This document shows, in pieces, positions 14,176-21,025 of a DNA stretch of 21,694 bases; the first letter of the stretch is position 1; every line of letters starts with the position of its first letter. The translations under genes were made by a program, and so were the position numbers. Where the stretch lies: IMG/VR virus record IMGVR_UViG_3300009512_000102, positions 1-21,694 of that record, one strand, 5' to 3'. The notes beneath the pieces were generated by a model. That model saw nothing but the letters and a program-made list of their open reading frames with translations, was not told the origin of the DNA and ran no database searches. Source of the stretch: a virus.

Positions 14176-15183
14176 ATGTTAATTGAAACAAAAATACTAT
14201 TAAAAACAAAGTACTATCTATTTAACAACAAGCAGATAGATGATAATAATATAGAGCTTCCTATAAACAAGTTTTATAAACGACTGTACGGTGATAGATA
14301 TAACATCTATGATATAATACCGCAGTGCAAGCAAGAAGAAGAAATAGAGCATCTACGCTCTATCTCGCATGCATTAGAGGGAGTGTCTGACCAGGATATT
14401 ATAGACTATAATGAAAATATAGTTGCAACCTTTAGAAAAATTGAACAAAGTGGGTTATATACTAAAGAAGGCATGGAGTATACAAAATACAACGTGTATA
14501 CAACAACAGGCAGGCCTTCTAATTCTAATAAAGGCATAAATTATGCAGCATTAAATAAGGAAGATGGAACTCGAAAGAAATACGTTAGCAGATTTTCAGG
14601 AGGTTATTTGGCAGAATTTGATTATGACGCTTACCATTTAAGACTTATAGCTTCTTTAATAAACATAGAACAACCTGAGGGAAGCTTCCATAGATATTTA
14701 GGTAAACTATACTTTGATTCAGACACGCTAACGAAAGAGCAGTACAATGAATCTAAAAAAATAAGTTTCCAAATTTTATATGGCGGCATACCAAAAGAGT
14801 TTTTACGAATTGAATATTTCAATAAGATATCTGTATATATTTCTAAGCTTTGGGATATTTATAATAGTAAAGGTTATATAGAAACACCAATATTAAAGCG
14901 AAGGTTATATAAAAGAAATCTAAGAGACATGAACCCTCAAAAATTATTTAATTATTTAATACAGGCATACGAAACTGAAATGAATTGCAAGGTATTAAAA
15001 AATATTTTAGAGTTATTAGAAGAACATTCTAGTAAAATGGTGCTGTATGTATATGATGCATTTATATTTGATGTAGACCCTGATGAAAAGTTTCTTCTTA
15101 AAGAAATTCAGAGTCTAATGTCATTTCCATCTAAGCTTAAGATTGGTAGAGACTACCATAATATGAAGCATTTGGACCTATAA
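14176..15183 (+). CDS. Truncated, divergent family A DNA polymerase (palm/fingers only)
   Basis: The 335-residue product carries the family A polymerase core and nothing else. It has TTTGRP (109-114), motif A around D149 (FDYDAYHLRL), motif B with K194, F198 and Y202 (SKKISFQILYGG), GYIET (233-237), N259/Q263 and motif C around D294 (YVYDAFIFDV). Both catalytic aspartates are kept. E. coli Klenow is about 605 residues, so the 3'-5' exonuclease and most of the thumb are missing. Several usual residues differ: the steric-gate Glu of motif A is H154, the Arg before motif B is Tyr, and VHDE is Val-Tyr-Asp-Ala. It could be a split polymerase whose exonuclease lies elsewhere, a gap-filling enzyme, or a decayed copy. 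It interrupts the structural genes and has its own type B promoter. Confidence 0.82.
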   Translation: MLIETKILLKTKYYLFNNKQIDDNNIELPINKFYKRLYGDRYNIYDIIPQCKQEEEIEHLRSISHALEGVSDQDIIDYNENIVATFRKIEQSGLYTKEGMEYTKYNVYTTTGRPSNSNKGINYAALNKEDGTRKKYVSRFSGGYLAEFDYDAYHLRLIASLINIEQPEGSFHRYLGKLYFDSDTLTKEQYNESKKISFQILYGGIPKEFLRIEYFNKISVYISKLWDIYNSKGYIETPILKRRLYKRNLRDMNPQKLFNYLIQAYETEMNCKVLKNILELLEEHSSKMVLYVYDAFIFDVDPDEKFLLKEIQSLMSFPSKLKIGRDYHNMKHLDL

Positions 15184-15213: not shown

Positions 15214-16980
15214 ATGAACATAAATTATTTATTAAACGATTGGGCCTGGAGAGTTAACGACGGAATGCCAGACCCGAAAAATAGAAACCATCTTGATTTA
15301 CTTGAGGCAGCTCTTAGAGACCACAAGTATTCTGAAGAATTTATTGAAGCGTATATATCTGAAATTGAATTTCCATCTCCACAAGCTCTAGCGAAATACA
15401 AAGCTAAACACAAGATGAGAAAAACCACTAAAGTAAAAATAGCTGGTGATGAAACAACTGTTGGAGATGCTGAAAAAGCAGCTAAGTCAGGTGAAGAAGA
15501 CAAGCCGAAAGCCGATAATAAAAAGACAGTAGAAGCAAGCGCAGCAGCAAATAAAGATCTTTCAGATAAAATTGGTTCAGAAAAAGATCCAAAGAAAAAA
15601 GAATCTCTAAAAGCTGAATATCTTTCTAACCAACTTGATAACATGTTGAAAGTAAGTTCTATAGAATCAGGAGCTGGTAGATACAATATGAATACAGATG
15701 ATGTAAAATCATATAGAGGTTATTTAGAAAAAATAATAAATGACCCTGATGAGCCTGGAAAATCTATACAAAAGTTAAAAGATGACCAAGTAAAAAAGCA
15801 CGGTCCAATAACTGAAGATGATATAGATAAATTTATCGAAGAGTTAGAAGCAGGTTCAAAATCAGATGATCCTAATTTTGAAAAAAACATAAAGAGCAAG
15901 GTTAGAGGTAAAGGCGGACCAGGTTCAAGTTTTACTACTGGAGAAGCAGGAGCTCAAAGATACAGAAATGTAATACGAGCTTATTTAGAAACAGGCGGTA
16001 TAAGTCCTATAACTGGTAAAGTAGTTCCATTTAGTGAATGTCAGTTAGACCATATCGTATCGCTAGGAAACGAAGGAAAGGATGAGCCAAGCAATTGGAT
16101 GTTTATGGAAGAGCGGTTCAATCAATTCAAAGGAAAGAAGACTGATGAAGATATTAGAGCTGATTTAGAAGAAGATCATTATTTAACAGATGCTGAAATT
16201 GCTGCAGGTACTGAGAGTGACAAAGTTGAAACTGCACTTAAAAAAGAAGATAGAGCATTTTGGAAAAACAAATTTGCAAAATCAAAAGGCAGAGAGTTGG
16301 AGGCAGGTGTTACCAAAGCTCAAATTGAAAAAATGAGCAAGCCTGAATTGGCAAATTTAGTATATGGTTATAATTTAGCCAACCCTGAAAATGAATTATC
16401 AAGGTACCCAACACCTAAGGTAGATTATAAAGGAAAGAAATTATCATTTGCTAGAGGCGAAGGCAAAAATAGTCCTATAAAACCAGTTGAAGGGGACCCA
16501 AGTACTTATGGTCTATCTTTAGATGATGATAAGAAGGTAAATCAAGATAAATCTATGGATTACGAAGCTTCAATAAAAGCATTTAAAGACAATAGAGGTT
16601 CTGGTGGTAGAGAAAAGAACAAAGAACAATATATTGAAACAATAATGGAAGCAGGCCTTGCATCTGATTCAAAAGAGCTAGATGAAAGATTTAATAGTAT
16701 GCTTGAAGAACATAGAACTGGCCAGTTAAAGCGAAGTAGTGCTATAAAAGCCAAGATAAAAGCAGCAAAAGAAGCACCTGGATCTATGGAGCAGAAAAGA
16801 AAGATTGTAACTAAATCAATGAAGGAATTCATAAGACAGAATCCAGAACCATTTGGTGCAAAATCTGACAGTTTTATTAAAGACGCGAAAAAACGAAAGA
16901 AATCTGCTGAGTGGAAAGAATGGAAAACTTCTATGGACAACTACAGATATAAACAGTGGTCAAAGTTTGGAGAAAAATAA
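15214..16980 (+). CDS. HNH-domain protein with helical N-terminal module
   Basis: The 588-residue, highly charged protein has an HNH nuclease core at residues 240-310: the strand GISPITGKVVPFSECQ, then L278-D279-H280-I281, N294 and N303 (ERFNQFKGKK). The His and two Asn are in HNH order, but the zinc-binding CxxC pairs of many HNH proteins are absent. Residues 1-55 (NYLLNDWAWRVNDGMPD...) form a compact helical module I recall at the front of other large marine phage proteins. Residues 60-230 and 330-588 are Lys/Glu-rich and probably coiled or disordered. The late-type promoter suggests a role late in infection, such as DNA processing, or a virion protein, rather than host takeover. A homing endonuclease is less likely given the size. 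The next gene starts right after its stop. Confidence 0.72.
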   Translation: MNINYLLNDWAWRVNDGMPDPKNRNHLDLLEAALRDHKYSEEFIEAYISEIEFPSPQALAKYKAKHKMRKTTKVKIAGDETTVGDAEKAAKSGEEDKPKADNKKTVEASAAANKDLSDKIGSEKDPKKKESLKAEYLSNQLDNMLKVSSIESGAGRYNMNTDDVKSYRGYLEKIINDPDEPGKSIQKLKDDQVKKHGPITEDDIDKFIEELEAGSKSDDPNFEKNIKSKVRGKGGPGSSFTTGEAGAQRYRNVIRAYLETGGISPITGKVVPFSECQLDHIVSLGNEGKDEPSNWMFMEERFNQFKGKKTDEDIRADLEEDHYLTDAEIAAGTESDKVETALKKEDRAFWKNKFAKSKGRELEAGVTKAQIEKMSKPELANLVYGYNLANPENELSRYPTPKVDYKGKKLSFARGEGKNSPIKPVEGDPSTYGLSLDDDKKVNQDKSMDYEASIKAFKDNRGSGGREKNKEQYIETIMEAGLASDSKELDERFNSMLEEHRTGQLKRSSAIKAKIKAAKEAPGSMEQKRKIVTKSMKEFIRQNPEPFGAKSDSFIKDAKKRKKSAEWKEWKTSMDNYRYKQWSKFGEK

Positions 16981-17382
16981 ATGAGAACTCAATTACTTTG
17001 CACATTCACAAAAACAAAGCTACTTACAAAAACTGTCGATAGAATAATACAGGCATATGATATATTATATAATAAAATATTTGTATTAAATAACGAAGAA
17101 AATCAATCGGAGTTAATGTGCACATACAACATTGATTCATCAGTGAAAGTAGAAATACTTCCAGACACAATTTCACTGCATAGAAAAAAGCAAACTAACA
17201 CTCTATATACTATTAACGCACTCAACGAATGTATTAAGACAGTTAACAATGGAGTTTTAGATACAACATTCCAATTAGATTGGGGAAACTACCAAAACAG
17301 TATATTAGTTACGAACGAGTCCGGCCTTAGAAGAATAGATACATCTATAAAAGAAGTCGTGCACATTAAAGTTAAACGATAA
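16981..17382 (+). CDS. Conserved-looking hypothetical protein
   Basis: I do not recognise this 133-residue product. It starts with the base after the HNH gene stop codon, so translation is probably coupled. It is a mixed alpha/beta protein without signal peptide or membrane segment; the N-terminus (MRTQLLCTFTKTKLL, then DRIIQAYDILYNKIFVLNN) reads like a strand-helix-strand ferredoxin-like fold. Three cysteines (7, 47 and 85) are scattered. No catalytic motif is visible. It is co-transcribed with the HNH gene, which is the only hint to function. Confidence 0.72.
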   Translation: MRTQLLCTFTKTKLLTKTVDRIIQAYDILYNKIFVLNNEENQSELMCTYNIDSSVKVEILPDTISLHRKKQTNTLYTINALNECIKTVNNGVLDTTFQLDWGNYQNSILVTNESGLRRIDTSIKEVVHIKVKR

Positions 17383-17871: not shown

Positions 17872-18888
17872 ATGGCAAAGCAATTAGGATACGCATGTAT
17901 TAACATGCACTTACGAAATCAAGGTATATATACAGGTAGATCTATGATACGACGCACGTTTGATGCAAAAGGTTTAGACTATGTGTCTGAACTATGTATC
18001 GCAAATACTAAAGATCTTATCAAGATAATTCAGTGGAATGAAGACAATGGAATAAAAGTATTTCGTATGTCTAGTGAAATATACCCTTGGATGTCTGAAT
18101 ATGAATTCAAAGATCTTCCAGACTATAACAAGCTTTGTAAATTACTAAAGCAAGTAGGTGATCTTGCTCAGCAATATGGTCAACGTTTATCGTTTCACCC
18201 AGGCCAGTTTACAGTTTTAGCTTCACCTACACAAAAGGTTGTAGATGGCGCATGGAATGAATTAAACAAATCTGGCCAGATTATGGATCTTATGGGGTTA
18301 CCGCGATCTAGAATGGCAAAAATAAATATACATATAGGCGGCGCTTACGGCAACAAGGAAACTGCACTTGTTAGATTCTGCAATAACTTCGAAAAGCTAT
18401 CCGAATCTGCAAAGTCTAGACTGACAGTAGAAAACGACGATAAGGCCTCAATGTATTCTGTAGTAGATTTATACGAAGGTGTATACAAACGCGTAGGTAT
18501 TCCTATTGTATTTGATTATCACCACCACCAATTTTGCACCGGTGGCCTTACTGAGGAGCAAGCTTTAAAGCTAGCTGTATCTACGTGGGGCGATATAAAG
18601 CCTTGCACTCATTATTCTGAATCACGTAGACGTGAGCATACTTTAATAGTAGAGGACATAATGGCAAAAAATAAAATAACGGAAAGCACTTTGTCAGACT
18701 TTCCTACAATAAAAAAGCTACACCATGATGTAAGCAAGATAAGAGTACAAGCTCATTCAGATCTTATAGTAGATAAAATACATGACTATGGACTTGACAT
18801 CGATGTTGTAGTAGAAGCAAAACATAAGGAGTTAGCAGTAAAAGGATATATAAATAAATTCGAACAAACATTAACAAAAGTTTCATAG
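17872..18888 (+). CDS. uvsE: UV damage endonuclease UvsE (UvdE family)
   Basis: This TIM-barrel, metal-dependent endonuclease nicks DNA 5' to UV photoproducts and starts alternative excision repair. The 338-residue length is normal. The family's metal-site stretches are all present: LGYACIN near the N-terminus, FRMSSEI (E69), SFHPGQF (H109), INIHIGG (H154), LTVENDD (E187), FDYHHH (D215, H217), CTHYSE (H247), AHSDL and VVVEAKHKE (E315). The ATG directly follows the promoter motif with no Shine-Dalgarno sequence, so a leaderless message is likely. It opens the repair and recombination block and probably protects phage and host DNA in sunlit surface water. This is one of the surest calls here. 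Confidence 0.95.
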   Translation: MAKQLGYACINMHLRNQGIYTGRSMIRRTFDAKGLDYVSELCIANTKDLIKIIQWNEDNGIKVFRMSSEIYPWMSEYEFKDLPDYNKLCKLLKQVGDLAQQYGQRLSFHPGQFTVLASPTQKVVDGAWNELNKSGQIMDLMGLPRSRMAKINIHIGGAYGNKETALVRFCNNFEKLSESAKSRLTVENDDKASMYSVVDLYEGVYKRVGIPIVFDYHHHQFCTGGLTEEQALKLAVSTWGDIKPCTHYSESRRREHTLIVEDIMAKNKITESTLSDFPTIKKLHHDVSKIRVQAHSDLIVDKIHDYGLDIDVVVEAKHKELAVKGYINKFEQTLTKVS

Positions 18889-19135: not shown

Positions 19136-19891
19136 ATGGCAATAGATTTAGATGCAATCAGACGTAAGTTAAATAACTTACAAACACAAACAGGTAGACA
19201 AGACAGTCTATGGAAACCAGAACCAGGTAAGAACCAAGTAAGAATCGTACCATATCAATTTAATAAAGACAATCCATTCATTGAAATGTATTTTCATTAT
19301 GATTTAGGTAAGAAAAATTACTTATCACCAGTAACATATGGAGATCCAGACCCAGTTGATGAGTTCGCTCAAAAACTAAGAGCTACAGGTAAATCAGATG
19401 ATTTTAACTTAGCTAAAAAACTTACACCTAAGATGAGAGTATATGCTCCAGTATTAGTAAGAGGTAAAGAATCAGAAGGTGTTAAGCTTTGGGGATTTGG
19501 TAAACAAGTATATACTGAACTATTAGGATTTATAGCAGATCCAGATTATGGTGACATTACAGATGTACAAGCTGGTAGAGATATTTCAGTAGAATTTACA
19601 CCGGCAGAAGGAGTAGGAAACTATCCTAAGACAGCAATTCGTGTGAAGCCAAATCAAACAGCAGCTACTGAAGATAAAAATATAGCTGATAAAATTGTAA
19701 ATGGTCAGAAAGATATCTATGAGATATTTAAAAAGAATTCTTACGATAACTTAAAAGCAGTACTAGGTGAGTGGTTAGATCCAGACTCAAATCTTGAAGC
19801 TGAACAGGCTCCAGTTGCAACATCAACAGCAACAGGCGTTAAGTCAACTGAAAGTATTGAAACTGCATTCGACGATTTGTTTAACGAGTAA
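19136..19891 (+). CDS. 32: Single-stranded DNA-binding protein, gp32-like
   Basis: The protein coats single-stranded DNA during phage replication and recombination and works with UvsX. The 251 residues follow the gp32 plan. A basic N-terminal stretch (LDAIRRKLNNLQ) serves cooperative binding. The OB-fold core includes SLWKPEPGKNQVRIVPY, FHYDLGKKNYLSPVTYGD and KLWGFGKQVY. The tail is acidic and ends FDDLFNE. T4 gp32 is 301 residues and has a zinc-binding subdomain with three cysteines; this protein has no cysteine at all, so that zinc site is lost. AAAGGAGA precedes the ATG. The uvsX ATG comes 3 bases after its stop codon, so the two are translationally coupled, in keeping with their physical partnership. 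Confidence 0.9.
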   Translation: MAIDLDAIRRKLNNLQTQTGRQDSLWKPEPGKNQVRIVPYQFNKDNPFIEMYFHYDLGKKNYLSPVTYGDPDPVDEFAQKLRATGKSDDFNLAKKLTPKMRVYAPVLVRGKESEGVKLWGFGKQVYTELLGFIADPDYGDITDVQAGRDISVEFTPAEGVGNYPKTAIRVKPNQTAATEDKNIADKIVNGQKDIYEIFKKNSYDNLKAVLGEWLDPDSNLEAEQAPVATSTATGVKSTESIETAFDDLFNE

Positions 19892-19894
19892 AAT

Positions 19895-21025
19895 ATGGCA
19901 AAGGCAAAGAAAAACAAACGAGATGAATTGGCGTCAGTATTGGCTGACTCTCTAAATAAACAGTTCAAAGGTATGAAAGTTGCATACTTCTTAGATGGAG
20001 CAGAAGATACACCGACTGATTTAACTGAGTGGATAAGCACTGGTTCATCGATTCTTGACCTTGCTATTTCTAATAGGCCAAATGGTGGTTTACCTGTAGG
20101 TAGAATTACAGAAATTACTGGAATGGAAGCCTCCGGTAAATCACTATTAGCGGCTCACTTACTTGCAAACACTCAGAAAATGGGAGGTCTTGCTGTATAC
20201 ATCGATACTGAAAATGCTATGAATGAAGAGTTCTTAACAGCAATAGGTATGGATATGACTAAGATGCTTTATATTCAACTTGAAACGGTAGAAGATATTT
20301 TTGAGGTAATTGAAAATATAATTCTTAAAGTTAAAGAAAGTGATAAAAACAGACTTGTATCAATAGCAGTAGATTCTGTTGCGGCAGCAACTACTAAAGT
20401 TGAACAGGCTCAGGATTATGACAAAGAAGGGTGGGCAACGTCAAAGGCAATAGTACTATCAAAAGGTATGAGGAAAATTACTCAGCTAATAGGTAGAGAA
20501 AGAGTTGCTCTGTTCTTTACAAATCAATTAAGACAAAAGCTAGGAGTCATGTTTGGCGACCCTTGGACGACAAGTGGTGGTAAGGCAATTCAGTTCCACG
20601 CTTCATGCAGATTGAGATTAAAGGCAGCAGGACAGATCAAAGCTAAAATTGCAGGTAAAGAACAAGTAATAGGTATTAAGACTAAATGCGTTGTTGTAAA
20701 AAATAGAATGGGTCCTCCATTACGCACAGCAGAATTCAACATCTTTTTCGAATCAGGGATAGATGACACAGGATCTTGGCTGCAGGTAATGAAAGACTAT
20801 AGTTTAGTGAAACAAGGAGGGTCATGGTATACTTATACTTGCGACGTTACAGGTGAAGACATCAAGTTTTTATCTAAAGACTTCGAAGAAAAGATACTTT
20901 CTCATCCTGAAAGAAAAGAAAGTTTATATAAAAAGATTTGTGAAACAATGGTTATGTCATATAAAACTGATGGTATTGGTATCGATGATATCGAAATCGG
21001 AAATGATGATGTACCAATAGGATAA
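19895..21025 (+). CDS. uvsX: Recombinase UvsX (RecA-like)
   Basis: UvsX forms filaments on single-stranded DNA and carries out strand invasion for recombination-dependent replication and repair. The 376 residues include Walker A (GMEASGKS, 76-83), the catalytic glutamate E106 in YIDTENAM, Walker B ending at D160-S161 (VSIAVDS), and the DNA-binding loop region TNQLRQKLGVMFGDPW with TSGGKAIQFH (209-235). The C-terminus is acidic (GIDDIEIGNDD). Length and motif spacing are as in T4 UvsX (391 residues). It is the last gene of the H1-gp32-uvsX unit. No clear terminator follows; the next feature is the tRNA-like RNA 8 bases on. Confidence 0.95.
   Translation: MAKAKKNKRDELASVLADSLNKQFKGMKVAYFLDGAEDTPTDLTEWISTGSSILDLAISNRPNGGLPVGRITEITGMEASGKSLLAAHLLANTQKMGGLAVYIDTENAMNEEFLTAIGMDMTKMLYIQLETVEDIFEVIENIILKVKESDKNRLVSIAVDSVAAATTKVEQAQDYDKEGWATSKAIVLSKGMRKITQLIGRERVALFFTNQLRQKLGVMFGDPWTTSGGKAIQFHASCRLRLKAAGQIKAKIAGKEQVIGIKTKCVVVKNRMGPPLRTAEFNIFFESGIDDTGSWLQVMKDYSLVKQGGSWYTYTCDVTGEDIKFLSKDFEEKILSHPERKESLYKKICETMVMSYKTDGIGIDDIEIGNDDVPIG

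What the first reader, a model, noticed from the sequence alone, without database searches (positions are those of the whole stretch)
14176..15183. Minimal, divergent family A polymerase without exonuclease or thumb
The palm and fingers motifs with both catalytic Asp (D149, D294), K194, F198 and Y202 are present in only 335 residues. Positions that are nearly fixed in Pol I differ: the motif A Glu that excludes ribonucleotides is His (H154), the Arg ahead of motif B is Tyr (Y190), the Gly after the motif B Phe is Gln (Q199), and VHDE is VYDA. The protein may be a distinct polymerase type with altered sugar selection or a helper enzyme.
Basis: partly seen in the sequence, partly recalled or inferred. 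Interest (0 to 1): 0.72.

Follow-up and report, generated by a model that had tools for sequence, protein, structure and literature searches.

The report
Thumbless accessory phage polymerase (divPolA1)
The gene encodes an intact, conserved, stripped-down relative of DNA polymerase I that marine T4-like phages carry beside their real replication polymerase; the family was named divPolA1 in 2024, so it is not new, but its shared changes at the sugar-selecting site and its constant small partner gene are worth testing.

Summary
ORF 14176-15183 (335 aa) is an intact family A polymerase core: catalytic Asp149 and Asp294, Lys194, Phe198, Tyr202, with His, Tyr and Tyr where E. coli Pol I has Glu710, Arg754 and His881. 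These changes are family signatures, not decay: invariant in 46 diverse representatives, absent from 10 ordinary PolAs, dN/dS 0.09-0.14. The thumb (~104 residues) is gone and the dead 3'-5' exonuclease domain has lost its first part. The family is known: divPolA1 (Yutin et al. 2024, PMC11348598), an extra polymerase kept beside a regular replicase. The window's closest relatives carry a family C replicase, not gp43; other members carry family B or A. Added here: the short form is one clade; a 133-aa protein of unknown function (16981-17382) accompanies divPolA1 in every locus long enough to tell; a FEN-type 5'-3' nuclease lies in the same cluster; the gene between the two partners looks like a hypervariable capsid-targeted cargo slot. 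Best explanation: an accessory gap-filling polymerase working with FEN, gp32 and UvsX as a 'split Pol I'. Relaxed sugar selection is plausible but untested; replacement of the primase is unlikely, because several of these genomes encode a DnaG-type primase.

The parts
14176..15183 (+). divPolA1 gene, 335 aa: exonuclease-dead, thumbless family A polymerase (short form)
14176..14463 (+). residues 1-96: helical remnant of the inactive 3'-5' exonuclease domain, ending in the IExxG exonuclease-thumb boundary motif
14512..14514 (+). R113 (E. coli R668), in the TGR motif at the start of the palm; the thumb should precede it and is absent
14620..14637 (+). motif A D149-Y-D-A-Y-H154: catalytic Asp (D705) and His at the steric-gate position (E710)
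14743..14784 (+). motif B Y190...K194...F198...Y202-G203 (R754 replaced by Tyr; K758, F762, Y766 kept); fingers shortened by about 16 residues just after it
15046..15060 (+). motif C Y291-V-Y293-D294-A295 (QVHDE of E. coli Pol I), catalytic Asp D882
15214..16980 (+). 588-aa protein: conserved ~50-aa N-terminal domain with an I/L-x-E site, variable C-terminal part with a weak HNH match; hypervariable slot between divPolA1 and its partner
16981..17382 (+). 133-aa partner protein 'c2' of unknown function, present with divPolA1 in every locus long enough to tell
17872..18888 (+). UV-damage endonuclease UvdE (in 8 of the 25 compared loci)
19136..19891 (+). gp32-like single-strand DNA-binding protein
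19895..21025 (+). UvsX recombinase; in relatives a FEN-type 5'-3' nuclease gene follows further downstream, beyond the window's end

Best explanation
The gene is a short-form member of divPolA1, an accessory family A DNA polymerase of T4-like marine phages. SHOWN from sequence, or predicted with high confidence: an intact palm and fingers with all core catalytic residues, no thumb, and a dead and here partly deleted proofreading domain. SHOWN in relatives: it stands beside a separate regular replicase (family C in the closest relatives, B or A in others), and sits in a cluster with gp32, UvsX, a FEN-type 5'-3' nuclease and (in GenBank relatives) a DnaB helicase. INFERRED: it performs short, distributive DNA synthesis, filling gaps left by FEN during Okazaki-fragment maturation, recombination or UvdE-started repair. 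Polymerase and 5' nuclease, which bacterial Pol I carries on one chain, would be separate genes here. INFERRED, weaker: the constant 133-aa partner (16981-17382) takes over part of the missing thumb's job (holding DNA, or docking on gp32, UvsX or helicase), and the family-wide His/Tyr substitutions around the nucleotide pocket alter nucleotide or sugar selection. The identification as divPolA1 is about 0.97 certain; the confidence given here is for the function.
For: Intact ORF over the Pfam cut-off. Of the 80 IMG/VR relatives kept, none has an internal stop. Catalytic and signature residues are invariant in 46 representatives under 90% identity. dN/dS 0.09-0.14. Confident AlphaFold2 model (pLDDT 92, pTM 0.88) aligns to the Bst Pol I large fragment at Z 25.6, 320 residues, rmsd 4.1. 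Thumb deletion of about 104 residues located by a profile slide. A regular replicase is found as well: PolC in G001-G005, PolB in 15 of 24 contigs, PolA in immuto and 11 related genomes. FEN nuclease in 24 of 27 records. gp32, UvsX and UvdE adjacent in the window. The published family description agrees (PMC11348598).
Against: No activity has been measured for any divPolA1, as far as the papers found here tell. Without a thumb it may bind primer-template poorly. Loss of Arg754, a triphosphate contact in Pol I (established knowledge), could lower activity. The FEN gene does not adjoin divPolA1, so joint action is inferred from the cluster. Yutin et al. suggested that it takes part in replication itself rather than only in repair. 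The partner's function is unknown; it has no credible match among known families or solved structures.
Confidence: 0.55

Rival explanations
1. divPolA1 is a core replication enzyme rather than a repair helper: it works at the fork (for example lagging-strand synthesis or primer extension) while the swappable regular polymerase does the other strand or bulk synthesis.
For: It keeps its place next to gp32/UvsX/helicase while the regular replicase changes between families A, B and C; Yutin et al. drew this conclusion from 14 genomes.
Against: No thumb and no proofreading suit low processivity; a full replicase is found in most of the longer records.
Confidence: 0.25
2. It makes RNA or mixed RNA-DNA: His at the steric gate and Tyr for Arg754 let it use rNTPs, so it primes or extends RNA primers.
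For: Invariant His at the D+5 steric-gate position in all members against Glu in 10 of 10 ordinary PolAs; Glu710 is the gate that excludes rNTPs in Pol I (PMC13228545).
Against: DnaG-type primases are found in G002, G006, G007, immuto, Mel-JY01 and LR756508, so a replacement primase is not needed there; His is itself bulky, and Phe198, which assists the gate, is kept.
Confidence: 0.1
3. It is catalytically weak or inactive and serves as a scaffold or DNA-binding subunit of the replisome together with the 133-aa protein.
For: Thumb and part of the fingers lost; Arg754 lost; constant pairing with a small protein.
Against: All residues needed for catalysis are 100% invariant and the motif neighbourhoods are the most conserved part of the protein, which a scaffold would not need.
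Confidence: 0.08
4. Decayed fragment or assembly error in a normal polymerase gene.
For: Short length only.
Against: Open in all 80 relatives kept, purifying selection, same gene order throughout, separate intact replicases in relatives.
Confidence: 0.01

Closest known systems
divPolA1 (Yutin et al. 2024, Virol J 21:200, PMC11348598; type example Flavobacterium phage vB_FspM_immuto gp001)
   Same: 35% identical over 91% of the window protein (E 7e-49); same D705/H710/Y754/K758/F762/Y766/Y881/D882 pattern; thumb lost, exonuclease dead, extra to a regular DNA polymerase, replication genes downstream.
   Different: The window protein belongs to one clade of short forms (332-354 aa against 408-449) that has also lost the first part of the dead exonuclease domain; whether the paper's 14 genomes include this clade could not be told from its text.
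divPolA2 (same paper; barbaviruses)
   Same: Also an extra, divergent phage PolA without a normal thumb or exonuclease.
   Different: According to the paper it has an unrelated N-terminal globular domain and a variable gene neighbourhood; not compared by sequence here.
Bacterial DNA polymerase I / Klenow, Bst and Taq large fragments
   Same: Palm and fingers fold and catalytic residues; a remnant of the exonuclease domain. Taq and Bst also have inactive exonuclease domains (established knowledge).
   Different: No thumb (about 104 residues fewer), fingers about 16 residues shorter, E710H, R754Y, H881Y; 5' nuclease on a separate gene.
T4 gp43 (family B) replicase system
   Same: T4-like neighbours: gp32, UvsX and tail genes.
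   Different: The closest relatives carry a family C replicase and no gp43 match; divPolA1 is unrelated to gp43.

Membership tests
divPolA1 | Sequence kinship with immuto gp001 | tested here: met
   tblastn E 7e-49, 35% identity over 91%; shares the signature residues that ordinary PolAs lack
divPolA1 | Palm catalytic residues conserved | tested here: met
   R668, D705, K758, F762, Y766, N845, Q849, D882 equivalents invariant
divPolA1 | Thumb truncated | tested here: met
   About 104 residues missing between the exonuclease-thumb boundary and the TGR motif
divPolA1 | 3'-5' exonuclease inactivated | tested here: met
   The part that would hold exonuclease motif I is absent from the window protein (model aligns from Bst residue 367); in long forms the DTE motif is not preserved (by eye)
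divPolA1 | Present in addition to a regular DNA polymerase | tested here: met
   Not in the 21.7-kb window itself, which is a fragment, but PolC in its closest relatives and PolB or PolA in others
divPolA1 | Conserved replication genes downstream | tested here: met
   gp32 and UvsX in the window; FEN in relatives; DnaB in immuto and Mel-JY01
Family A DNA polymerases (Pfam PF00476) | Score above the curated cut-off | tested here: met
   47.4 bits against 34.3
Canonical Pol I (polA) | Thumb, steric-gate Glu710 and Arg754 | tested here: not met
   NCBIfam polA models far below cut-off
Canonical Pol I (polA) | Polymerase activity | not testable with these tools
   needs purified protein
Single-subunit (T7-type) RNA polymerases | Motif and fold kinship closer to ssRNAP than to Pol I | tested here: inconclusive
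   all listed best structural matches are DNA polymerases, which does not exclude the other; use of rNTPs not tested

The most novel reading that the evidence does not exclude
divPolA1 and the 133-aa protein form an obligate two-subunit polymerase in which the small protein replaces the missing thumb, and the invariant His/Tyr pocket gives it a nucleotide preference (possibly ribonucleotides or modified bases) unlike any known family A DNA polymerase.
Probability: 0.15. Interest if true: 0.78.

Novelty: new member of a known kind. Interest (0 to 1): 0.42.

Why it matters
A family A polymerase that has shed its thumb and proofreading but kept every catalytic residue across very diverse marine phages asks how little a polymerase needs and what replaces the thumb. 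The phages keep it while their main replicase differs between families A, B and C, so it may be the constant part of their replication module. The invariant His at the steric gate and the constant 133-aa partner make the question directly testable with two small proteins.

Tried and rejected
Decayed fragment or assembly break: rejected. Sole replicase of the phage: rejected, because regular replicases of families A, B or C are found in relatives. A stand-in for a missing primase: judged unlikely, because DnaG-type primases are found in six of 27 records including the three GenBank phages; absence in the other, mostly fragmentary records proves nothing. Identity of the 133-aa partner: no match in Pfam, NCBIfam or solved structures, only chance-level PHROGs matches, and no match in T4 (which without a positive control shows little). 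hhalign with a shallow PolA profile placed the pre-palm helices on the thumb's end; the profile slide over nine PolAs put them on the exonuclease-thumb boundary clearly in E. coli, CRP-3, LfeInf, HTVC033P and Troll, weakly in HMO-2011, and not in SPO1L1, immuto gp199 or LIS04, so the latter reading was kept, in line with the published 'truncated thumb'. A search of prokaryote genomes gave only two MAG contigs, both flavobacterial. The tree was a quick search with long branches for Mel-JY01 and LR756508; their places are unsure.

Full report
WHAT IS THERE. The frame 14176-15183 (+) is an uninterrupted 335-aa ORF in a 21,694-base IMG/VR virus fragment that otherwise holds T4-like tail genes, UvdE, gp32 and UvsX. 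It scores above the curated cut-off for Pfam DNA_pol_A and is closest among solved sequences to Taq Pol I.

REAL AND CONSERVED. A scan of IMG/VR found 230 relatives; the best 80 were kept, at 38-90% identity and none with an internal stop in the match. In 46 representatives under 90% identity the catalytic residues and the odd ones (H154, Y190, Y293) are all invariant. dN/dS against six close relatives is 0.09-0.14. This is a functional gene, not debris.

RESIDUES. Mapped on E. coli PolA: R668, D705, K758, F762, Y766, N845, Q849 and D882 are kept; E710 is His, R754 Tyr, H881 Tyr, S707 Asp, I709 Tyr/Phe and Q879 Tyr. His at 710, Tyr at 754 and Tyr at 881 occur in 38 of 38 divPolA1 rows and in none of 10 ordinary PolAs. 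Glu710 is the residue that excludes ribonucleotides in Pol I (PMC13228545), so altered sugar selection is a fair but untested prediction.

ARCHITECTURE. The AlphaFold2 model is confident (pLDDT 92.3, pTM 0.88) and aligns to the Bst Pol I large fragment (Z 25.6, 320 residues, rmsd 4.1) starting at Bst residue 367. A long-form relative (424 aa; pLDDT 89.2) aligns from residue 301 (Z 25.9, 378 residues, rmsd 3.4). So long forms keep a whole but dead exonuclease domain, and the window's form has lost its first part. The helix before the palm ends in IExxG and, slid along ordinary PolAs, fits best at the exonuclease-thumb boundary in E. coli, CRP-3, LfeInf, HTVC033P and Troll; in E. coli that boundary lies 138 residues from the TGR motif, here 34, so about 104 residues of thumb are missing. 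About 16 residues of the fingers after motif B are missing too. The short forms are one clade on a quick tree (one change).

WHAT IT IS CALLED. Yutin et al. 2024 (PMC11348598) described exactly this family as divPolA1 in 14 phages: catalytic palm kept, thumb truncated, exonuclease inactivated, an extra polymerase beside a regular one of family A, B or C, with replication genes downstream. Each of these features was tested here and met.

THE REGULAR REPLICASE. The window is too short to hold it. Its closest relatives carry a family C polymerase (G001-G005); 15 of 24 contigs carry family B; immuto and 11 other records chosen by their regular PolA carry family A and divPolA1 together. On the tree the window's clade is consistently C and sits next to B carriers.

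PARTNERS. A 133-aa protein (16981-17382) is present in all 25 loci compared. It occurs in exactly the six GenBank phage records that carry the close divPolA1 relatives, in 25 of 27 records searched by profile (the divPolA1 gene of the other two, G006 and G019, lies near a contig end), and in the same 12 of 13 immuto-like records as divPolA1. A reverse search starting from the 133-aa protein gave 80 loci: all 40 with more than 3 kb upstream carry divPolA1, and the other 40 are too short to tell. It has no known relative. A FEN-type 5'-3' nuclease lies in the same cluster in 24 of 27 records, DnaB follows in immuto and Mel-JY01, and UvdE is present in 8 of 25 loci.

HOW IT MOST LIKELY WORKS. A polymerase without thumb or proofreading, clustered with a FEN nuclease, single-strand binding protein and recombinase: the simplest reading is short gap-filling synthesis, a split version of Pol I. 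This step is inference. Replication at the fork (the published suggestion), rNTP use, and a scaffold role are the rivals. DnaG-type primases in six records argue against a primase replacement.

LIMITS. No enzyme activity is known; the partner was not modelled; IMG/VR contigs are fragments; the quick tree has long branches. Whether the paper's genomes include the short clade could not be read from its text.

Noticed in passing
15214-16980 and the equivalent gene in 23 relatives (e.g. L003, L004, L006, L007): The gene between divPolA1 and its 133-aa partner is a hypervariable slot: a shared ~50-aa N-terminal domain followed by unrelated C-terminal parts even between close relatives. In 23 of 24 copies an L/I-x-E site lies at residues 35-66 (7.4 expected in random stretches of the same proteins; 0 of 1000 draws as high), like the T4 prohead-protease site; a prohead protease is found in four of 12 records. 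It may encode capsid-targeted, injected proteins like the T4 internal proteins.
   Followed up: partly
16981-17382: 133-aa protein family with at least 590 relatives in IMG/VR, no known relative, invariant HRK....T.YT.N.LN core; never seen without divPolA1 where the contig is long enough.
   Followed up: partly
17872-18888: UvdE-type UV endonuclease between the partner and gp32 in 8 of 25 loci; with FEN and a gap-filling polymerase this would make a UV repair path.
   Followed up: no
L169, L170: divPolA1 relatives on contigs binned into Flavobacteriales and Winogradskyella MAGs, fitting a flavobacterial host as for immuto.
   Followed up: no
L084 (LR756508, 484 kb): A huge phage carries a divergent divPolA1 (motif A DYDAFH), the 133-aa partner, FEN, DnaG and a family C polymerase.
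   Followed up: partly
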